From: Phycisphaerae bacterium
GTDB lineage: Bacteria; Planctomycetota; Phycisphaerae; SM23-33
Direction of reading: 5' to 3'
DNA length: 46,479 nucleotides
NCBI GenBank assembly: GCA_011050235.1
Contig: DRGC01000089.1
Coordinates: forward strand, 1-46,479
Shown: one piece after another, positions 1,305 to 9,947 of the stretch
Layout: every line of letters starts with the position of its first letter
How positions within the stretch are numbered: the first letter of the stretch is position 1
Program-made: the position numbers and the translations under genes
The notes under the pieces: generated by a model
What the model saw: the letters and a program-made list of their open reading frames with translations, nothing else
What the model was told of the DNA's origin: nothing
Databases searched by the model: none

Positions 1305-2615
1305 CTATGGGCGTCTGCGTCTGCGAAACAGTCCAATCGCTCCGCATCCCATGACGAGAAGCGTGGCCGGTTCGGGGACAGCCCCCGTCGGCGCCTCGAA
1401 GCCGAAGCTGGCTTTCAGGATGGCCAGGTCCGTGGCGTCGACAAGGCCGTCGGCGTTGGCATCGCCGAACTCGAAGCCGACCCCGGCGGTTCCGTAGCTG
1501 TGCTTCATGATGGCCAGGTCCGTGGCGTTGACCATCAGATCGCCGTTGAAGTCGGGGACGATTCGTATCGCATCGGCCCCTTGAAGCTCCGCGCCATCCA
1601 TCAGCACGCCCGTCAGGGCCAGTTCGGTCATCCCCGGCTCGATGCCCAGCGCCTGCATCTCGAAGTGCACGAGCAAGTCGAGCAGCAAATCGCCATCCAC
1701 GTCCTCGAACGAGACGTGCCAACTGCCGTCGGGCATTAGTCTGGGGCCCACGCCGTTCAGCAGAAGCGTGTCCAGATCGATCTCGGTCAGGTCCAGCTCG
1801 TCGCTGCCGTAGACGACAACAGGCAGGAGGCCCATCGACTTGAGGTTGACGCTGTTGGCATCGCTGCCGGGCTTGATGTCCAGACTCACCGAGACGATTT
1901 CGACAACCGGCCCGATGGTCGTCCCGGACACCAGGTCAGGATCTCCGGTGGTGTAGTTAGTCCATGTCTCCCACTGGACATCTCCTGGAGAGTATGGGTG
2001 GACGATGCGGAACGTCAGAAGCAAGCCGGCAAGGTACTGAAAATTCGTGACGCCGCTGGCGTTCTGCCACGTAACGCCATCCTCGTCGACGAGCCCCGGC
2101 TGATTCCAGAAGCTCAGTTCGTGAGCGTACTCATCGCCCGTGTGCCACTGGTTGATCATGCCCCACGCGGCGTTGGGGTCGGCCGGGTCGGGCAAGACCC
2201 ACTCATGGACGCCGGGGGATACTTCATCCCAATACGAGGGGTACTCCGTGCGCAGCTGGTAGCCCATCCACCAGGAGAGCCCTTCGGTCGTGTGGTCATC
2301 CCACCGCTGGGTAAGCCCGGTGTACTCGGCCCATTCGCTGTAGTATTGGTTGACGATCTGCGTCCCGTCGAACCCTCTCAAATACACATCTCTCGTCCAG
2401 GCATGGTTCTGGCCGTCGGCGGCCGTGGAACCCACGACGTCGTAGACATATTCCCACATGCCCGGGAAGTCATCACCGGCGCCGAGCTGTCGATACGAAA
2501 TGCATTCCACGTACGTGTCCCCGGGCACAAACGAGCGCGTCCCTGCCCCGGCCTGAGCTACCATGATTAGGCAGCCAAGAAGCACTGTTCCTGTTTGGAG
2601 TCTTGTTCGTTTCAT
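1305..2615 (-). CDS. PEP-CTERM protein with dockerin-like repeats
   Basis: 436 residues. Starts GTG 2618 and ATG 2615 are adjacent; ATG 2615 is preferred because AAGGA lies 8 nt upstream. A Sec signal peptide (TVLLGCLIMVAQAGAG) precedes an aromatic-rich N-terminal domain of about 210 residues that I do not recognise. Next comes the SLDIKPGSD module with an acidic FEDVDGDLLLDLL stretch, then two dockerin-like Ca-loop repeats (DFNGDLMVNATDLAIM and GDANADGLVDATDLAILK). The C-terminus is a textbook PEP-CTERM signal: VPEPATLLV, a short hydrophobic helix and RRRRR. Proteins of this kind are processed by an exosortase and delivered to the envelope or extracellular matrix. The exosortase itself is not in the window. 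From the SLDIKPGSD module onward the gene is ~96% identical in DNA to the neighbour at 1-467. Confidence 0.85.
   Translation of the reverse strand: MKRTRLQTGTVLLGCLIMVAQAGAGTRSFVPGDTYVECISYRQLGAGDDFPGMWEYVYDVVGSTAADGQNHAWTRDVYLRGFDGTQIVNQYYSEWAEYTGLTQRWDDHTTEGLSWWMGYQLRTEYPSYWDEVSPGVHEWVLPDPADPNAAWGMINQWHTGDEYAHELSFWNQPGLVDEDGVTWQNASGVTNFQYLAGLLLTFRIVHPYSPGDVQWETWTNYTTGDPDLVSGTTIGPVVEIVSVSLDIKPGSDANSVNLKSMGLLPVVVYGSDELDLTEIDLDTLLLNGVGPRLMPDGSWHVSFEDVDGDLLLDLLVHFEMQALGIEPGMTELALTGVLMDGAELQGADAIRIVPDFNGDLMVNATDLAIMKHSYGTAGVGFEFGDANADGLVDATDLAILKASFGFEAPTGAVPEPATLLVMGCGAIGLFRRRRRP
1436..1902. repeat. Duplicated 467-bp gene segment, copy 2 (partner 1-467)
   Basis: This is the second copy of the segment described at 1-467, lying inside the complete PEP-CTERM/dockerin-like gene. 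Several mismatches change residues, for example VIHF versus LVHF and TGLQGAD versus AELQGAD. Both reading frames stay open, so both copies appear to be under coding constraint. Confidence 0.9.
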
Positions 2616-2707
2616 CACGTTGTTCCTTTCCTAAACGTCATCCTCATTGTGACTGTCACCCGCTCAACCCAATGCCACGGGTCCATGTTCGTTTTCCCAC
2701 CAGCGCT

Positions 2708-2992: not shown

Positions 2993-3216
2993 CCTTTCTC
3001 TCCCACGTGTCCATCTCGAGCCCCTGTCCCCAAATGCGGGCAAAGACTCTCCACCGCGCCTCTAATTCAACTCCTTAGGATAACGACCAATCTGTTCGAG
3101 TCAAGACAAGAACGGAAATTATCCCGTCTCCGGTCCCGACGCGTCGGGACACACCCTACGGACAAACCAACATGCAATGAGTTCTCATAAGCTGTGCGAC
3201 TTTCTGTGTGTTCGTT

Positions 3217-3300
3217 TCAGTTCCGCCTTCGCTTCAACAGCGCCGCCGCGCCCATAGCCAGCAGGCTCAGCGTGGCGGGCCCGGGGATCGCGGCGGCCAT
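3217..3300 (-). pseudogene. Remnant of a PEP-CTERM gene tail
   Basis: On the minus strand a 27-residue stretch ends at a stop at 3217-3219. It reads A-A-I-P-G-P-A-T-L, a hydrophobic helix, then KRRRN, which is a PEP-CTERM sorting tail with PGP in place of PEP. The frame continues back to 3444 but codes for basic, low-complexity sequence without a signal peptide, overlapping the dnaE promoter and start. I read it as the surviving 3' end of a lost family member, which would make four in a row on this strand. It also argues that dnaE does not begin at the far-upstream 3194 start. Confidence 0.4.
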
Positions 3301-3361
3301 CGCTATTCTTCCCGGGACAGTCGAACAAGTTCCCCGCAGGCGACCGGCAAACAAGAACCGC

Positions 3362-3390
3362 TTGGTCGGGGTTGGCGCGTGTGGTATCAT
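3362..3390 (+). promoter_or_regulatory. Candidate sigma-70 promoter of dnaE
   Basis: TTGGTC at 3362-3367, a 17-bp spacer and TATCAT at 3385-3390. Transcription would start near 3397, upstream of both plausible dnaE starts (3419 and 3431) and downstream of the 3194 start. The -35 box is weak (3 of 6) and the -10 box is good (5 of 6). Confidence 0.4.
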
Positions 3391-3430
3391 CCGCCGGCTT
3401 GGCCGCCGCGACGGTCGCATGGAAGCGAGT

Positions 3431-6400
3431 ATGGACGGATTCACCCACCTTCACGTGCACTCACATTACTCCCTGCTCGATGGGGCCAATCGGATCGGGG
3501 ACCTGGTCGCCGTCGCCGGTGAGTTTGGGATGGACGCCCTGGCCCTGACCGACCACGGGAACCTGTTCGGGGCGGTCGACTTCTACACGGCCGCGACCGA
3601 AGCCGGCATCAAGCCCATCCTGGGGCTCGAGGCGTACATCTCGCCGACGACGCGTCAGGATCGGACGATGGCCAATATCTCCGCCGCCTCCAGCCACGTC
3701 GTTCTGCTGGCCATGAACCAGACGGGCTGGCGAAACCTGATGAAGCTTTCGTCGCGGGCGTATCTGGAGGGCTTTTACTATCGCCCGCGCATCGACCGCG
3801 AGCTGCTGGCTGAACTGAACGAGGGGCTGATCTGCATGACGGCCTGTTTGGGCGGGCAGGTGCCCTCGGCCCTGCTGTCGGGCAAGGGCGACCAGGCCCG
3901 AACGTTCGCCGGCCAGTACCTGGACATCTTCGGCCGCGAGCGATTCTTTATCGAACTGCAGGATGCCGGCCTGCCCGAGCAGCGCCAGGTGAACCCGCTG
4001 CTGCTGGCGCTGGCCGACGAGCTCGGCGTTGAGGTCGTCGGCACCAACGACGTGCACTTCCTGCGGCGCGACGACAAGCGCGCCCATGAAGTTCTCACCT
4101 GCATCGCCACCGGCCGAACGCTCGACGATCCGGGGCGGCTGGAATACTCCGAGGAGCTCTACCTCAAGAGCCCTGCCGAGATGCGGCAGGTCTTCGCGTT
4201 CTGCCCGCGGGCGGCCGACAACACGCTGACCATCGCCGAGATGTGCGACGTGAAGCTCGACTTCTCGGCGAAGTATTTACCCTCCTTCGCCACGCCCGAC
4301 GGCAAGACTGCCGATCAGTACATCCGCGAACTGGCCGAAAAGGGCTTGCGGCAGCGCTTCGACGGCGGCGACCCGCCGGTGGAGTATCGCGACCGCCTCG
4401 ACCGGGAGTTGCGGGTCATCGCGGACAAGGGGTACAGCAGCTATTTCTTGATCGTCAACGACTTCGTCCAGTTCGCTCACGCCAACAGCATCCCGGCGGC
4501 CCCGCGCGGCAGCGGCGTGGCGACGCTGCTGGGCTACGCGTTGGGCATCGCCAACGTCGATCCGATCCACTACGGCCTGCTGTTCGAACGCTTCACCGAT
4601 CCGCAGCGTGATGAAGACCCGGACATGGACATCGACATCTGCCAGGACGGCCGCGCCCGAGTCCTCCAGTATGTCCGCGAAAAATACGGGCACGTCGCCC
4701 AGGTGATCACCTACGGAACGCTCAAGCCGCGGGCGGTCCTTCGCGATGTGGGGCGCGTGATGGGCATGCCCATCCCGGACGTCGACGTGATCTGCAAGAA
4801 GATCCCTGAGGGCTTGAATGTCACGCTCGACAGCGCCCTCGAAAGTGAGCCCGAACTCCAGCGGATGGTCGAGACCGACGATCGGATCCGCCAGATGGTC
4901 GACTACGGCCGCTCGCTCGAAGGCCTGGCCCGCCACAGCGGGGTCCATGCTGCAGCCGTCATCGTGGCCGATCAGGCGTTGGAGAACCTGCTCCCGCTGT
5001 GCCGACAAGCCGACAGCGAGGACGTCATCACCCAATGGGACGGTCCCACCTGCGAGAAGATCGGGCTGATGAAGATGGACTTCCTCGGTCTGCGGACGCT
5101 GAGCATTATCCAGCGGGCCCACGAACTCGTGCGAGACCGCACCGGCGAGGATATCGACCCCGAGAAGCTCACGCTGGACGACCCGGCGGTATTTGAGCTT
5201 TTCTGCGCCGGCCAGACCGACGGCGTGTTCCAGTTCGAATCTGAAGGGATGAAGAACGTCCTGACCCAGATGCGGCCGAACCGGATCGAGGACCTCATCG
5301 CCGCCAACGCTATGTACCGCCCCGGGCCCATGGAGTTGATCCCCAGCTACTGCGCCCGCAAGCACCAGCGCGAGGCCGTCCCGTCGGTCCACAAGCTGGT
5401 CGACGATGTCCTCGCCGAGACCTACGGCGTGATGTGCTATCAGGAACAGGTGATGCAGGTCCTCAGCCGCCTGGGGCAATTCCCGCTGAGCCGGGCCCTG
5501 ACGCTGATCAAGGCGATCTCCAAGAAGAAGGAAGAAACCATCGCCGCCGAGCGCCCGAACTTCATCACCGGCGCGAAGGCCAACGGTATCGTCGAGGGGG
5601 AAGCCCAGGAGCTTTTCGATTTGATCCTGAGGTTCGCCGGCTACGGGTTCAACAAGGCCCACTCCACGCGCTACGCGATCGTGGCCTACCAGACCGCCTA
5701 CTTCAAGGTCCACCACCCGCTGGAGTTCATGGCCGCTCTGCTGACGTTCGAGAGCGGCGACACCGACAAGGTCGTGCAATACATGTCCGAAGCGGCGCGG
5801 ATGAAGGTCGGCATCGCCCCGCCGGATATCAACACCTGCGGCAAGGATTTCGCCGTCGACGGCGATTCGGTGCGGTTCGGCCTAGCGGCCGTCAAAGGCG
5901 TCGGGGCCAAGGCCGTCGACGCCATTCTCGCCGACAAGGCGACGCTGGATCGGCCCTTCCGCGACCTGTTCGACTTCTGCGAGCACGTCGACGTGCGGGC
6001 GGCCAACCGGGCGACCCTCGAAGCCCTGATCAAGTGCGGCGCCTTCGACGCCCTCGGCGCCCACCGGGCGGCCATGATGGCGGCGCTGGACCAGGCCCTC
6101 TCGCTCGGCCAGTCCGCCGCCGCCGATCGACAGAGCGGCCAGTTGAGCATGTTCGCCGTCACCGACGACGATCGGCCGGCCGCGCGGTTCCCCGACGTCG
6201 AGCCCTGGTCCGAGGCGCAGCTGCTGACGGCGGAGAAGGAAACGCTCGGCTTCTACGTAAGTTCCCACCCGCTGGTCAAGTATGGCCGGGAACTGGCCAG
6301 CCTGACCACCCCGCCGACGTTCGCCCTCGCCCGCACCGACGAGGCCGCGGACCGCACGCCCGTCTGTGTGGGCTGCACCATCGCCGGCGTCCGCCGCGTG

Positions 6401-6943
6401 ACGACGCGCAGCAGCAACCGGCGCATGGCCATGCTGACGCTGGAGGACCTCACCGGCAAGTGCGACGCGGTCGTCTTCCCCGACACCTACGAGCAACTGG
6501 GCGAGCAGCTGGTCGAAGACGCCCTGGTGTTCGTCATCGGCGCAGTCGACCGGTCGCGCGATCGGCCGAACATCCTGGTCAACAAGATCATCCCCATCGA
6601 CCAGGCGATCCAGGAGCTGACCCAGTCCGTCCTGATCCGCCTGCCGGGCGGGATCACCGACGAGATGCTGGAGGGCCTCAAGGCCTGCCTGTCGGCCCAT
6701 CCGGGCCCGGCGCCCGTCCATGTCGAGCTGCAGCCCCAAACACGCGGCGACGTCCGGGCAACCGTCCGGCTGGACGCGCAATGGTCCGTCCAGCCGTCCC
6801 GCCAACTGGCCGACGCCCTGATCGACCTGCTCGGCGACCAGAAGCACCTTGTCCTGCTTCCCAAGCGCCCCACGTCCGATGAGGCCAACGGCCAGCGCCG
6901 CCGCCGCGGTCGAGCCAAAGCCGCCGCCAGCCAGACCAGGTGA
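3431..6943 (+). CDS. dnaE: DNA polymerase III alpha subunit
   Basis: Replicative polymerase of about 1170 residues, the usual DnaE1 size. ATG 3431 is chosen because GGAAG lies 5 nt upstream and the PHP domain starts at once; ATG 3419 is an alternative. The PHP domain opens with THLHVHSHYSLLDG (residues 5-18) and continues with DHGNLFG, LEAYI, CMTACLGG and GTNDVHF. By eye these supply the full set of metal ligands, unlike the decayed set in E. coli. The polymerase core shows PRGSGVATLLGYALG, the catalytic PDMDIDI (about 396-402), MDFLGLRT (about 548), YRPGPMELIP and AGYGFNKAHSTRYA. An OB fold lies near 980-1040. The C-terminus ends in a basic arginine/alanine tail. It is followed by dnaA 242 bp downstream. 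Confidence 0.97.
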   Translation: MDGFTHLHVHSHYSLLDGANRIGDLVAVAGEFGMDALALTDHGNLFGAVDFYTAATEAGIKPILGLEAYISPTTRQDRTMANISAASSHVVLLAMNQTGWRNLMKLSSRAYLEGFYYRPRIDRELLAELNEGLICMTACLGGQVPSALLSGKGDQARTFAGQYLDIFGRERFFIELQDAGLPEQRQVNPLLLALADELGVEVVGTNDVHFLRRDDKRAHEVLTCIATGRTLDDPGRLEYSEELYLKSPAEMRQVFAFCPRAADNTLTIAEMCDVKLDFSAKYLPSFATPDGKTADQYIRELAEKGLRQRFDGGDPPVEYRDRLDRELRVIADKGYSSYFLIVNDFVQFAHANSIPAAPRGSGVATLLGYALGIANVDPIHYGLLFERFTDPQRDEDPDMDIDICQDGRARVLQYVREKYGHVAQVITYGTLKPRAVLRDVGRVMGMPIPDVDVICKKIPEGLNVTLDSALESEPELQRMVETDDRIRQMVDYGRSLEGLARHSGVHAAAVIVADQALENLLPLCRQADSEDVITQWDGPTCEKIGLMKMDFLGLRTLSIIQRAHELVRDRTGEDIDPEKLTLDDPAVFELFCAGQTDGVFQFESEGMKNVLTQMRPNRIEDLIAANAMYRPGPMELIPSYCARKHQREAVPSVHKLVDDVLAETYGVMCYQEQVMQVLSRLGQFPLSRALTLIKAISKKKEETIAAERPNFITGAKANGIVEGEAQELFDLILRFAGYGFNKAHSTRYAIVAYQTAYFKVHHPLEFMAALLTFESGDTDKVVQYMSEAARMKVGIAPPDINTCGKDFAVDGDSVRFGLAAVKGVGAKAVDAILADKATLDRPFRDLFDFCEHVDVRAANRATLEALIKCGAFDALGAHRAAMMAALDQALSLGQSAAADRQSGQLSMFAVTDDDRPAARFPDVEPWSEAQLLTAEKETLGFYVSSHPLVKYGRELASLTTPPTFALARTDEAADRTPVCVGCTIAGVRRVTTRSSNRRMAMLTLEDLTGKCDAVVFPDTYEQLGEQLVEDALVFVIGAVDRSRDRPNILVNKIIPIDQAIQELTQSVLIRLPGGITDEMLEGLKACLSAHPGPAPVHVELQPQTRGDVRATVRLDAQWSVQPSRQLADALIDLLGDQKHLVLLPKRPTSDEANGQRRRRGRAKAAASQTR

Positions 6944-7185: not shown

Positions 7186-8532
7186 ATGGCAACGGTCGAT
7201 CGCGCCTTATGGCAGGGAATCATCCAACACGTCGTCGCCTCGGGCGGCAGCATCATCCGCCCGTGGTTCACACAACTCGAACCGATCGCTCTGGAGCACG
7301 GCCTGCTGGAAATCCAGGTCCCCGGCGAGACCGAACGCACCTATTGCCAGCAGAACGCCACGCGCCTGTTCACTGAGGCCGCCCAAGCGACGACCGGCAG
7401 GCTGGTGACCGTGTGTTTCCTGACGGCTGTCCTGGCCGAGCAGGCCAACAACCCCGCCGACGTGATCGAGGTCGACAGCTACAACGCCACCTGGGACGAA
7501 GAGGGCCTGCTGCCCTTCAACGAAGACTACACCTTCAGCGGGTTCGTCACCGGGCCCTGCAACCGCCTGGCCCACGCCGCCAGCCTGGCCGTCAGCGAGT
7601 CGATGGGCAAGACGTACAACCCCCTGTTCCTCCACGGCAGCAGCGGCCTGGGCAAGACCCACCTCCTGCAGGCCACCTGCCAGCGAATTACGGAACTCGC
7701 GCCCGGCGCGCAAATCTACTTCCTGTCCTGCGAGACGTTCGTCAACCATTTCATCCAGGCGGTTGAGCGCGGCCAGTTGCACCAGTTCCGCTACCGTTAT
7801 CGCCACGTGGACGTGCTGGCCATCGATGACATCCAGTTCCTCTCCGACCACGAGCAGACGCAGGAAGAGTTTTTCCACACCTTTAACACCCTCTACCAGG
7901 CGCAGAAGCAGATCATCCTGTCCTCCGACCGCGGCCCGGCGGAGATCGCCGGCCTGGAGGACCGCCTGGTCAGCCGATTCAACTGGGGACTCGTCGCCCG
8001 CATCGACCGCCCATGCTACGAGACGCGCATGGCCATCCTGCACAAGAAGGCCCGGATGCGGGGCCTGGAACTGCCCGAGGATGTCACGTGCTTCATCGCC
8101 GGGACGATCGAATCGAACACGCGCGAACTGGAAGGCGCGATCGCCAAGGTCGCGATGCTGGCCCAGGTGGCCGAGCGGCCGATCGATCTGGATCTGGCCA
8201 GGCGGGCCCTCGGCGCCGATGGGGCCACCTCCGGCGCCGAGATCACCATCGAGGACATCCTCTCAGCAGTGACGTCACGATACAGCGTGCGCCTGGCCGA
8301 CCTGCAGAGCAAGAAGCGCACCCGCTCGATTACCTTCCCCCGCCAGATCTGCATGTATCTGGCGCGGCAGTTGACCCGCCACAGTCTCGAAGAGATCGGT
8401 GGGTACTTCGGCGGGCGCGACCATACCACCGTCCTGCACGCCAACCGGACAATTAAGGACCTCATCCAGCGCGACCCGCAATTGCAGGCCACCGTCGATC
8501 GACTATCGCAAGATATCCGCGCCGTCCGCTAG
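7186..8532 (+). CDS. dnaA: Chromosomal replication initiator DnaA
   Basis: 448 residues, standard size. The AAA+ ATPase that binds DnaA boxes and melts the origin. Seen: Walker A GSSGLGKT near residue 151, Walker B LAIDDIQF near 212, sensor-like ILSSDRGP, an arginine-finger region LEDRLVSRF, and the C-terminal box-binding helix-turn-helix with GGRDHTTVLHANRTI near 409. The N-terminal domain I (ALWQGIIQHVV) is short and divergent, as usual for the family. AGGAAAGG precedes the ATG. The 242 bp upstream hold only a weak promoter-like pair (TTGCTT 7021-7026, TAAAGT 7043-7048). The downstream intergenic region carries a consensus DnaA box, so the gene probably sits beside its own origin. Confidence 0.97.
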   Translation: MATVDRALWQGIIQHVVASGGSIIRPWFTQLEPIALEHGLLEIQVPGETERTYCQQNATRLFTEAAQATTGRLVTVCFLTAVLAEQANNPADVIEVDSYNATWDEEGLLPFNEDYTFSGFVTGPCNRLAHAASLAVSESMGKTYNPLFLHGSSGLGKTHLLQATCQRITELAPGAQIYFLSCETFVNHFIQAVERGQLHQFRYRYRHVDVLAIDDIQFLSDHEQTQEEFFHTFNTLYQAQKQIILSSDRGPAEIAGLEDRLVSRFNWGLVARIDRPCYETRMAILHKKARMRGLELPEDVTCFIAGTIESNTRELEGAIAKVAMLAQVAERPIDLDLARRALGADGATSGAEITIEDILSAVTSRYSVRLADLQSKKRTRSITFPRQICMYLARQLTRHSLEEIGGYFGGRDHTTVLHANRTIKDLIQRDPQLQATVDRLSQDIRAVR

Positions 8533-8565
8533 GTCGCTGGGCCTGTCGGCAAACCTGTGAGCGAG

Positions 8566-8575
8566 TTGTGGATAA
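8566..8575 (-). promoter_or_regulatory. Consensus DnaA box
   Basis: The plus strand reads TTGTGGATAA, so the minus strand carries TTATCCACAA, a perfect match to the DnaA box consensus TTATCCACA. It lies 34 bp after the dnaA stop codon. Confidence 0.7.
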
Positions 8576-8690
8576 GCTATTGTTGCTGCTGTGTGCTACG
8601 GAAACATAGACTTCCCAACACGGGACTCCCCGGCGGCTTACCGCAACCCGGCAGCACTAACCGATCTCTCCTAACAGCGCCGCCGACAGG

Positions 8691-8699
8691 TTTTCCACA
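8691..8699 (+). promoter_or_regulatory. Near-consensus DnaA box
   Basis: TTTTCCACA differs from TTATCCACA at one base. It is on the opposite strand to the box at 8566 and about 120 bp away, at the left edge of the G-poor stretch. Confidence 0.45.
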
Positions 8700-8888
8700 G
8701 CCCTCAGCGCCCAAAACGTCACCAGAACCCTAGCAACAACCCTGCCTTACAAATAACCGCCTCTACAAACCCCACAACCCACAACACCTACCAATACGAT
8801 AGACTACTTAAATTTATATCCCTCTACACCTCCACATCGAACAACCATTTCGCTTCTCACCCATGTGCATTGGCGTATAATCCGCCCG

Positions 8889-9947
8889 ATGCTTCACCGA
8901 ATACGCCCCACAACCGGAACTCCGATTCCCGTCGGTCCGGACCGCCCAATATGGTGGCGGGTGCTTGTCCTTTCCGGTGTCTTGATCGCGTTCGTCATAG
9001 CTGCATCTGTGGGCTATCACGTTATTGAAGCTGAATACAGTTGGCTGGATGCAGTCTATATGACGGTCATCTCAGTTTCGACGGTCGGCCTGCGGGAAGT
9101 GGGCGATTTATCGGATGCCGGCCGAATCTGGACGATGTTCGTGATTGCCCTGGGGCTTATCATCATGGCTGTTTTTATCAGTTCGCTAGGTGGCATAATT
9201 ATCGAACGCAGAATCCGACAGGTTCTTGGGAGGCGTCTCGTGGAACGAAAGATAAACTCGTTGGCTGGACATATTATTGTCTGCGGATACGGACGCATGG
9301 GCTCGGTTATTTCCGATGAGTTGAAAACAGCCAAGCGCTCGGTTGTTGTAATCGATGCGGATCCGGAACGAATAGTGATGGCTGAACGTACGGGGTTATT
9401 CGTTGTGCTAGGCGATGCCCAGGAAGAAAATATTCTTGAAGCCGCGGGCATCAAACGGGCATCCGTGTTAATGGTCGCCCTTACCAACGACGCCGATAAC
9501 CTGTTCGTAACGCTCTCGGCTCGTCAAGCCAACGCGGATATTCACATCGTTGCCCGAGCTCAGCAGGAGACCTCTCAGCGAAAGCTCCTCAAGGCTGGCG
9601 CCGACAGTGTGGTTTGTCCGCAGACGATCTGCGCACGGCGGATGGCGGGTCTGATCCTTCGCCCGGCCGTCGTGGAACTGGCCGACATGGCCCAGCGCGG
9701 GCTGAATCTGGAGGTCAACCAACTCCAGGTGGCCGCCGGATCGAAGCTCGCCGACAAGACGCTCGCCGAGCTCGAACTGCCGCGAAAACTCGGCGCCCAT
9801 ATCGTCGCCATTCGCCACGCCGAAGGTCAGGCCAACTATCACCCCAAGCCCGACACGAAGCTCTCTGTGGGCGACACGCTCGTTCTGATGGGCGAGAGCG
9901 GCTCATCCGACGCCATCGAACGTCTCCAGAGCGAGACGGCCGGGTAG
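8889..9947 (+). CDS. Two-TM potassium channel with RCK (TrkA) domains
   Basis: 352 residues from ATG 8889. GTG 8865 is possible, but a TATAAT at 8876-8881 lies between the two, favouring the later start and a very short leader. A first TM helix (about 22-45), a pore loop with STVGLREVG, and a second TM helix (about 78-98) form the channel unit. It is followed by RCK_N with a Rossmann motif (GHIIVCGYGRMG) and acidic IDAD, then RCK_C. This is the layout of MthK/Kch-type ligand-gated K+ channels in the inner membrane. The selectivity filter reads TVGLRE rather than TVGYGD, which may change selectivity. The first two thirds look lower in GC than the last third (break near 9600). Confidence 0.85.
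   Translation: MLHRIRPTTGTPIPVGPDRPIWWRVLVLSGVLIAFVIAASVGYHVIEAEYSWLDAVYMTVISVSTVGLREVGDLSDAGRIWTMFVIALGLIIMAVFISSLGGIIIERRIRQVLGRRLVERKINSLAGHIIVCGYGRMGSVISDELKTAKRSVVVIDADPERIVMAERTGLFVVLGDAQEENILEAAGIKRASVLMVALTNDADNLFVTLSARQANADIHIVARAQQETSQRKLLKAGADSVVCPQTICARRMAGLILRPAVVELADMAQRGLNLEVNQLQVAAGSKLADKTLAELELPRKLGAHIVAIRHAEGQANYHPKPDTKLSVGDTLVLMGESGSSDAIERLQSETAG

What the first reader, a model, noticed from the sequence alone, without database searches (positions are those of the whole stretch)
8533..8864. Candidate oriC directly after dnaA, with dnaE just upstream
A consensus DnaA box, a one-mismatch box on the other strand and an AT-rich patch lie in the gap after dnaA. The common neighbour dnaN is absent; the next upstream gene is dnaE, an unusual order that puts initiator, replicative polymerase and origin within 6 kb.
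Basis: partly seen in the sequence, partly recalled or inferred. Interest (0 to 1): 0.55.

Follow-up and report, generated by a model that had tools for sequence, protein, structure and literature searches.

The report
Replication origin next to dnaA
The gap after the dnaA gene is very probably where this bacterium starts copying its chromosome: the same roughly 250-base layout recurs, mostly once per genome, in many related bacteria, even where it has moved away from dnaA.

Summary
Gap 8533-8864 holds an exact DnaA box (8567-8575, -), a one-mismatch box (8691-8699, +) and an AT-rich patch. dnaE lies upstream, dnaN is on another contig, and the cumulative GC-skew minimum of the 46-kb contig is at 8947.

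A sequence-only model of the gap, built from 17 relatives without the window, finds one place in the 4.0-Mb genome: this gap (43.4 bits, rough E 1.1e-10). It finds 29 of 35 genomes of the family, 12 of 18 not used for training. In 8 of those 12 the element is not beside dnaA. In five one-contig genomes it lies 2, 2.5, 29, 62 and 324 kb from the parS cluster; neither dnaA is systematically near parS. The model's right end also finds the dnaA-downstream region in other groups, mostly Firmicutes (20 of 21 hits, 19 of 80 loci).

New here: a left-arm DnaA box outside the model sits 118, 129 or 140 bp from the central box, in whole helical turns. This is a BUS-type oriC of an uncultured, probably Phycisphaerae, planctomycete. 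The window's own trios are degenerate, and nothing was tested at the bench.

The parts
8567..8820 (+). Candidate oriC core: left-arm box, central box, fixed-length spacer and unwinding region
   Evidence: Model R1 built without the window hits 8683-8807 as the only place at E<=10 in the genome; left arm by register analysis; skew minimum 8947
8567..8575 (-). Left-arm DnaA box TTATCCACA, 118 bp upstream of the central ACAGG-box anchor (the 118 register of 118/129/140)
   Evidence: Exact match; register in 29 of 32 copies
8683..8699 (+). Central extended DnaA box CCGACAGG-TTTTCCACA (consensus in relatives ccaACAggTTnTCCACA)
8747..8750 (+). TTAC, the conserved spacer mark seen as TTA in the relatives (possible weak DnaA site)
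   Evidence: Alignments A3/A4; function inferred
8775..8783 (+). Weak DnaA-like box CAACCCACA beside the unwinding site (3 mismatches to TTATCCACA)
   Evidence: Column match to relatives and to Firmicutes box / GC / trio regions; fails the <=2 mismatch screen
8784..8788 (+). GC-richer link ACACC between weak box and trio-like repeats
   Evidence: Alignment
8789..8819 (+). Unwinding region: degenerate DnaA-trio-like TACCAATACGATAGACTACTT then AAATTTATAT; AT-rich patch
   Evidence: Relatives read TAtnnaTACTACTAct here; 23 of 30 A/T; the window's own trios are degenerate
8720..8835 (+). G-poor strand: 6 G in 116 bases
   Evidence: the same direction of asymmetry in 27 of 32 copies
7186..8532 (+). 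dnaA (DnaA1), with the standard box-reading motif GGRDHTTVLHA
3194..6943 (+). dnaE, replicative polymerase alpha subunit (family match starts at residue 81, so the true start is probably downstream of 3194)
8865..9947 (+). TrkA-domain potassium channel gene bordering the origin
   Evidence: a gene of the same domain make-up is beside the element in G013, where dnaA is on another contig

Best explanation
The gap is the chromosomal replication origin (oriC). DnaA1, made next door, binds two facing high-affinity boxes (8567-8575 - and 8691-8699 +), each probably with a weaker tandem partner one helical turn away. The ~130-bp stretch to the right is held at fixed length, so that DnaA is passed from the central box to weak boxes beside the unwinding site. 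There it oligomerises on the strand opposite the CTACTA-like repeats (the DnaA-trio strand, 3'-GAT-5') and opens the AT-rich DNA at about 8790-8820. The opposed left arm works through a loop that needs the right face of the helix, which would explain why its box is found at 118, 129 or 140 bp. Shown here: the sequence elements, their conservation and geometry, uniqueness in the genome, and links to GC skew and parS. Inferred from B. subtilis and other work: DnaA binding, oligomerisation, looping, opening.
For: (1) Boxes, AT patch, skew minimum at the gap. (2) Gap architecture aligns in 18 of the 30 best dnaA1 loci (17 relatives plus the window), with 129-135 nt from CCAACAGG to the trio region. 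(3) Model R1 without the window: single hit in the own genome; 29 of 35 family genomes at 26.9 bits or more, 12 of 18 untrained, strongest secondary hit outside G011's duplicate contig end 17.0 bits; 68 stretches not known to hold the element, 1.27 Mb, give one hit of 13 bits. (4) Five one-contig genomes: element to parS 2.3, 2.5, 29, 62, 324 kb, combined p 1.3e-6; dnaA1 to parS p 0.36, dnaA2 to parS p 0.69 (four of the five lengths rounded). (5) Skew step across the element: mean +0.051 over 20 usable copies, none of 20,000 background resamples as high. (6) Left-arm box outside the model in the 118/129/140 registers in 29 of 32 copies, 12 of 15 untrained. (7) R1's right end finds dnaA-downstream regions in other groups, 20 of 21 hits within 400 nt after dnaA; this box/GC/trio layout is the unwinding system shown in B. 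subtilis (PMC6669920, PMC8287927, passages read). (8) DnaA1 keeps GGRDHTTVLHA.
Against: No whole-chromosome skew or read depth for this genome. Its parS cluster is on another contig (C21:35797-36128), so the distance is unknown. The window itself fails the published BUS screen. R1 finds nothing in one-contig relatives G039, G071, G066, in 72 of 150 class genomes at E<=0.1, or in four of five named Planctomycetota loci L122-L125 and L149 (only L123, 13.1 bits). Skew steps are flat or slightly negative in L083, L086, L087, L221 and L260, and for moved copies alone the step is weak (n=6, p=0.07).
Confidence: 0.93

Rival explanations
1. The box pair is a dnaA regulatory or DnaA-titrating cluster (autoregulation or a datA-like sink), and the origin is elsewhere.
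For: It borders dnaA, and a further box lies inside dnaA at 7871-7879.
Against: It lies after dnaA, not before. The element persists where it is no longer beside dnaA (8 of 12 untrained family hits), lies near parS in complete relatives, carries an unwinding region like that of dnaA-downstream regions of other groups, and coincides with skew steps.
Confidence: 0.04
2. The origin belongs to the second DnaA gene (DnaA2, G000:C93:28877-30106) or lies near dnaN (C50).
For: DnaA2 is found in nearly all relatives, has the DnaA N-terminal domain by Pfam and one box about 250 bp upstream. Several one-contig relatives are numbered from DnaA2.
Against: No skew switch at C93 or C50; the skew step at dnaA2 in 24 loci is near background (mean +0.012, 13 positive); DnaA2 is not near parS; no R1 hit in any of the dnaA2 loci searched; its box-reading motif is altered, GKNHSSVVLT.
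Confidence: 0.02
3. The gap is an ordinary promoter or terminator region of the Trk channel gene, with DnaA-like boxes by chance.
For: It directly precedes the channel gene.
Against: Two boxes where 0.002 are expected; conserved geometry across genera; in G003, G015, G017, G018 and G025 the flanking genes that were tested are not that channel.
Confidence: 0.01

Closest known systems
Bacillus subtilis oriC (incC region) basal unwinding system (BUS)
   Same: Downstream of dnaA; boxes facing the unwinding site, short GC-rich link, DnaA-trios; a distal box whose activity is helically phased (PMC6669920, passages read). R1's right end aligns with Firmicutes dnaA-downstream regions.
   Different: Boxes next to the trios are decayed (CAACCCACA in the window; Firmicutes loci commonly show TTATCCACA or a near match there). 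The strong box lies about 100 bp away, the left-arm box faces it, spacings are fixed across genera, and dnaN is absent.
BUS-type origins predicted across bacteria (Pelliciari et al. 2021, PMC8287927)
   Same: Box, spacer about 10, CTACTACTA trios in the right strand in relatives L022, L024, L025, L027.
   Different: The window fails the screen: weak box with 3 mismatches and interrupted trios.
Escherichia coli oriC (recalled, no call)
   Same: About 250 bp, strong and weak DnaA sites plus AT-rich unwinding region, phased spacing.
   Different: Not beside dnaA; different element order; no IHF or Fis site was sought here.

Membership tests
Bacterial chromosomal oriC | Cluster of DnaA boxes in an intergenic region | tested here: met
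   Two TTWTCCACA in 332 bp against 0.002 expected
Bacterial chromosomal oriC | Adjacent AT-rich unwinding region | tested here: met
   23 of 30 A/T at 8789-8819, joint highest in the window
Bacterial chromosomal oriC | At the cumulative GC-skew minimum of the chromosome | tested here: inconclusive
   Minimum of the 46-kb contig at 8947; whole chromosome not assembled; supportive in relatives
Bacterial chromosomal oriC | One per chromosome and conserved in relatives | tested here: met
   Single R1 hit at E<=10 in the own genome; 29 of 35 family genomes at 26.9 bits or more
Bacterial chromosomal oriC | Near the parS cluster | tested here: inconclusive
   Own parS is on another contig; in 5 one-contig relatives with a hit the distances are 2.3 to 324 kb
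Bacterial chromosomal oriC | Replication initiates there (read depth, autonomous replication) | not testable with these tools
   No reads, no bench work
BUS-type origin | DnaA box with at most 2 mismatches within 16 bp of the trios | tested here: not met
   Window: CAACCCACA, 3 mismatches; met in L022, L024, L025, L027
BUS-type origin | At least three consecutive DnaA-trios (3'-NAN-5') | tested here: not met
   Interrupted in the window; CTACTACTA in several relatives
BUS-type origin | Homologous position and columns in BUS-type origin regions of other groups | tested here: met
   R1 right end finds dnaA-downstream regions in 19 of 80 loci, though weakly (8.5-18.9 bits)

The most novel reading that the evidence does not exclude
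This planctomycete class uses a two-arm origin of its own layout: two facing strong box arms kept in whole-helical-turn registers (118/129/140 bp), a fixed ~130-bp path to an unwinding site whose own boxes have decayed, read by DnaA1 while a second conserved DnaA with an altered DNA-reading helix does something else. The origin has moved away from dnaA repeatedly while its geometry stayed fixed. The registers would be a natural record of the helical phasing that was engineered in B. subtilis.
Probability: 0.45. Interest if true: 0.6.

Novelty: new member of a known kind. Interest (0 to 1): 0.5.

Why it matters
It gives a searchable signature for the origin in a group that is mostly uncultured and known from fragmented genomes, independent of dnaA and of a closed chromosome. 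In four of five one-contig relatives with a hit, the element is 0.9-3.3 Mb from dnaA1, and four of the eight one-contig genomes examined are numbered from DnaA2, so starting such chromosomes at a dnaA gene would misplace the origin. The fixed registers offer a test, by comparison, of how DnaA-bound arms must face each other.

Tried and rejected
Looking only at box counts in the window: not significant by itself. Strict BUS screen on the window: nothing found. The same screen gives low-scoring matches on both strands in many relatives, so only the plus-strand CTACTACTA-type cases (L022, L024, L025, L027) were believed. Local skew steps around all dnaA1 genes without regard to the element are weak (mean +0.028, 19 of 26 positive; dnaA2 +0.012, 13 of 24; background -0.004, sd 0.045, n=116); some flanks there are short. 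In one search six of 20 at-dnaA copies and three of nine moved copies were dropped for flanks under 2.5 kb. G049 (two contigs) gave a noisy skew and decides nothing. Origin at DnaA2 or dnaN: rejected. Other RNA or tRNA features in the window: none. G011 has a second strong R1 hit at a contig end (C43:26-141), probably a duplicated contig end; not resolved. The G-poor strand is extreme in the window (-0.69) but only moderate in relatives (mean -0.17, 27 of 32 negative), so I do not build on it. Binomial and combined p-values treat related genomes as independent and are too optimistic. Literature: (listings) showed no paper on a Phycisphaerae origin or on paired DnaAs there; PMC8287927, PMC6669920 and PMC5109545 were read as found passages only; PMC7203096 was searched and held nothing in the part kept.

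Full report
WHAT IS THERE. The window is the whole contig C89 of a 4.01-Mb genome in 98 contigs. Gap 8533-8864 separates dnaA (7186-8532) from a TrkA-domain channel gene (8865-9947); dnaE (3194-6943) is upstream of dnaA. The two boxes are at 8567-8575 (-, exact) and 8691-8699 (+, TTTTCCACA), the AT-rich patch at 8789-8819. dnaN is on contig C50. The nearest named DnaA relatives are Planctomycetota, among them Phycisphaerales, so the host is most likely an uncultured member of Phycisphaerae; this is inferred from protein similarity, not from a name.

MORE THAN CHANCE. Genome-wide there are 21 TTWTCCACA sites, so 0.002 are expected in 332 bp. The contig's cumulative skew falls to a minimum at 8947 and then rises.

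COMPARATIVE ANATOMY. Of the 30 best dnaA1 loci (the window's own and 29 relatives), 18 including the window align through the gap. The blocks are: minus-strand GTGGATAAC; plus-strand CCAACAGG-TTWTCCACA; TAA and TTA marks; CACACAAnTnACA-gg-aCCTATnnA-TACTACTACT followed by T/A-rich DNA. From CCAACAGG to the trio region is 129-135 nt in all 18, although the 32 copies aligned later are on average only 46% identical. I chose the 18 by eye from the 30 gaps printed; the other 12 did not show it at that place, although the model later found the element further along the same contig or elsewhere in several of those genomes.

INDEPENDENT TEST OF THE WINDOW. A sequence-only model (R1) made from the 17 relatives, window left out, hits one place in the own genome: C89:8683-8807, 43.4 bits. 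In the family 29 of 35 genomes have a hit of at least 26.9 bits; of the 18 genomes not used for training 12 do, three have only noise-level hits (G007, G026, G033) and three have none (G012, G014, G021); the strongest secondary hit, apart from G011's second contig end, is 17.0 bits. In a draw of 150 genomes of the class 78 have a hit at E<=0.1, some of them near noise; in a draw of 149 from the phylum 25, four of these in the class, most of the rest near noise. Negative control: 68 stretches not known to hold the element, 1.27 Mb, gave one 13-bit hit.

THE ELEMENT MOVES, THE GEOMETRY STAYS. Among the 12 untrained family hits the element directly follows dnaA1 in G000, G005, G024 and G031. In G003, G013, G015 and G025 it lies on another contig from dnaA1 or 28 kb away; in G002 and G017 a few kb away; in G018 and G030 no dnaA1 was found in the assembly. 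In G013 it still sits beside a TrkA-domain channel gene; in G017 beside dnaE. In G042, G048, G051 and G057, from three other families, it again follows dnaA1 by 0.15-0.25 kb. The dnaA neighbourhood is therefore probably ancestral and has broken on either side.

SKEW AND parS. G054 is one contig: sampled skew is negative to about 2.9 Mb and positive from about 3.19 Mb, and the only R1 hit is at 3.160 Mb, while dnaA1 is at 0.97 Mb (near the skew maximum) and DnaA2 at the first bases. G039, also one contig, has no R1 hit; its switch and a parS pair (2.169 Mb) lie near dnaA1 (2.218 Mb). In the five one-contig genomes with an R1 hit whose parS I searched, element-parS distances are 2.3 kb (G098), 2.5 kb (G093), 29 kb (G054), 62 kb (G087) and 324 kb (G080). 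The combined chance is 1.3e-6, against 0.36 for dnaA1 and 0.69 for dnaA2, with four genome lengths rounded. In G087 dnaA1 (25 kb) is nearer to parS than the element is. Across 20 copies with usable flanks the skew step is +0.051 on average; 17 of 20 are positive (12 of 14 at dnaA, 5 of 6 moved). The moved copies alone are not significant (p 0.07).

LEFT ARM. The left-arm box was not part of R1. Its best match falls 118, 129 or 140 bp (+-2) before the central ACA in 29 of 32 copies; in the 15 untrained copies, 12. L252 (106), L098 (173) and L221 (135) do not fit. The registers were read off before being counted, so they are not a prediction made in advance. The window uses 118; most use 129. 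Steps of 11 bp mean the box stays on one face of the helix. In B. subtilis a distal box was shown to act with helical phasing and in either orientation (PMC6669920, passages).

LINK TO A KNOWN UNWINDING SYSTEM. Searching 80 dnaA-flanking loci from genome contigs, mostly of other phyla, R1 gives 21 hits at E<=10; 20 of them, in 19 loci, lie within 400 nt after the dnaA match. They are weak (8.5-18.9 bits) and most use the right end of the model. The sequences there, for example TTATCCACATATTCACAGCCCCTACTACTATTATTAC in Planococcus L132, have the B. subtilis-type box / GC / trio layout. The window reads CCCCACAACCCACAACACCTACCAATACGATAGACTACTT in the same columns: decayed boxes and degenerate trios, which is why the published screen (criteria from PMC8287927) does not pick it up.

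WHICH DnaA. The genome has a second DnaA (C93:28877-30106), as do nearly all relatives. DnaA1 keeps GGRDHTTVLHA, close to the GGRDHTTVIHA of the Bacillus-group sequences aligned with it; DnaA2 reads GKNHSSVVLT. DnaA2 has a Pfam DnaA_N match, DnaA1 none. DnaA1 is therefore the likely reader of the boxes; what DnaA2 does is open.

VERDICT. This is an origin of a known kind in a little-studied group, with an unusually clear fixed geometry.

Noticed in passing
G000:C93:28877-30106 (locus L031:13788-15200): A second, diverged DnaA present in nearly all relatives, with altered box-reading motif (GKNHSSVVLT) but a recognisable N-terminal domain; neighbours include dxr and an M50 protease.
   Followed up: partly
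G054, G087, G093, G098 contig 1, first 1.5 kb: These one-contig chromosomes are numbered from the second dnaA, hundreds of kb from the element and parS: the start convention misplaces the origin.
   Followed up: partly
G000:C21:35797-36128: Three perfect parS-like palindromes TGTTCCACGTGGAACA within 330 bp, on another contig than the origin.
   Followed up: no
window 8542-8561 and 8671-8696: Imperfect long inverted repeat (CCTGTCGGCAAACCTGTGAG / CTAACAGCGCCGCCGACAGG) around the box pair, part of the facing-arm layout.
   Followed up: partly
window 8720-8835: Most G-poor stretch of the window on either strand (6 G in 116); the asymmetry is weaker but mostly of the same sign in relatives.
   Followed up: partly
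window 1305-2618 (-): Protein with a dockerin domain and a PEP-CTERM sorting signal.
   Followed up: no
L020 (G036), after dnaA: In an order-level relative an ORF that by eye looks like a dnaE start follows dnaA with no box-bearing gap, the reverse of the window's order.
   Followed up: no
G080:C1:3701061-3701131: A second, partial R1 hit 26 kb from the main one on the same strand.
   Followed up: no
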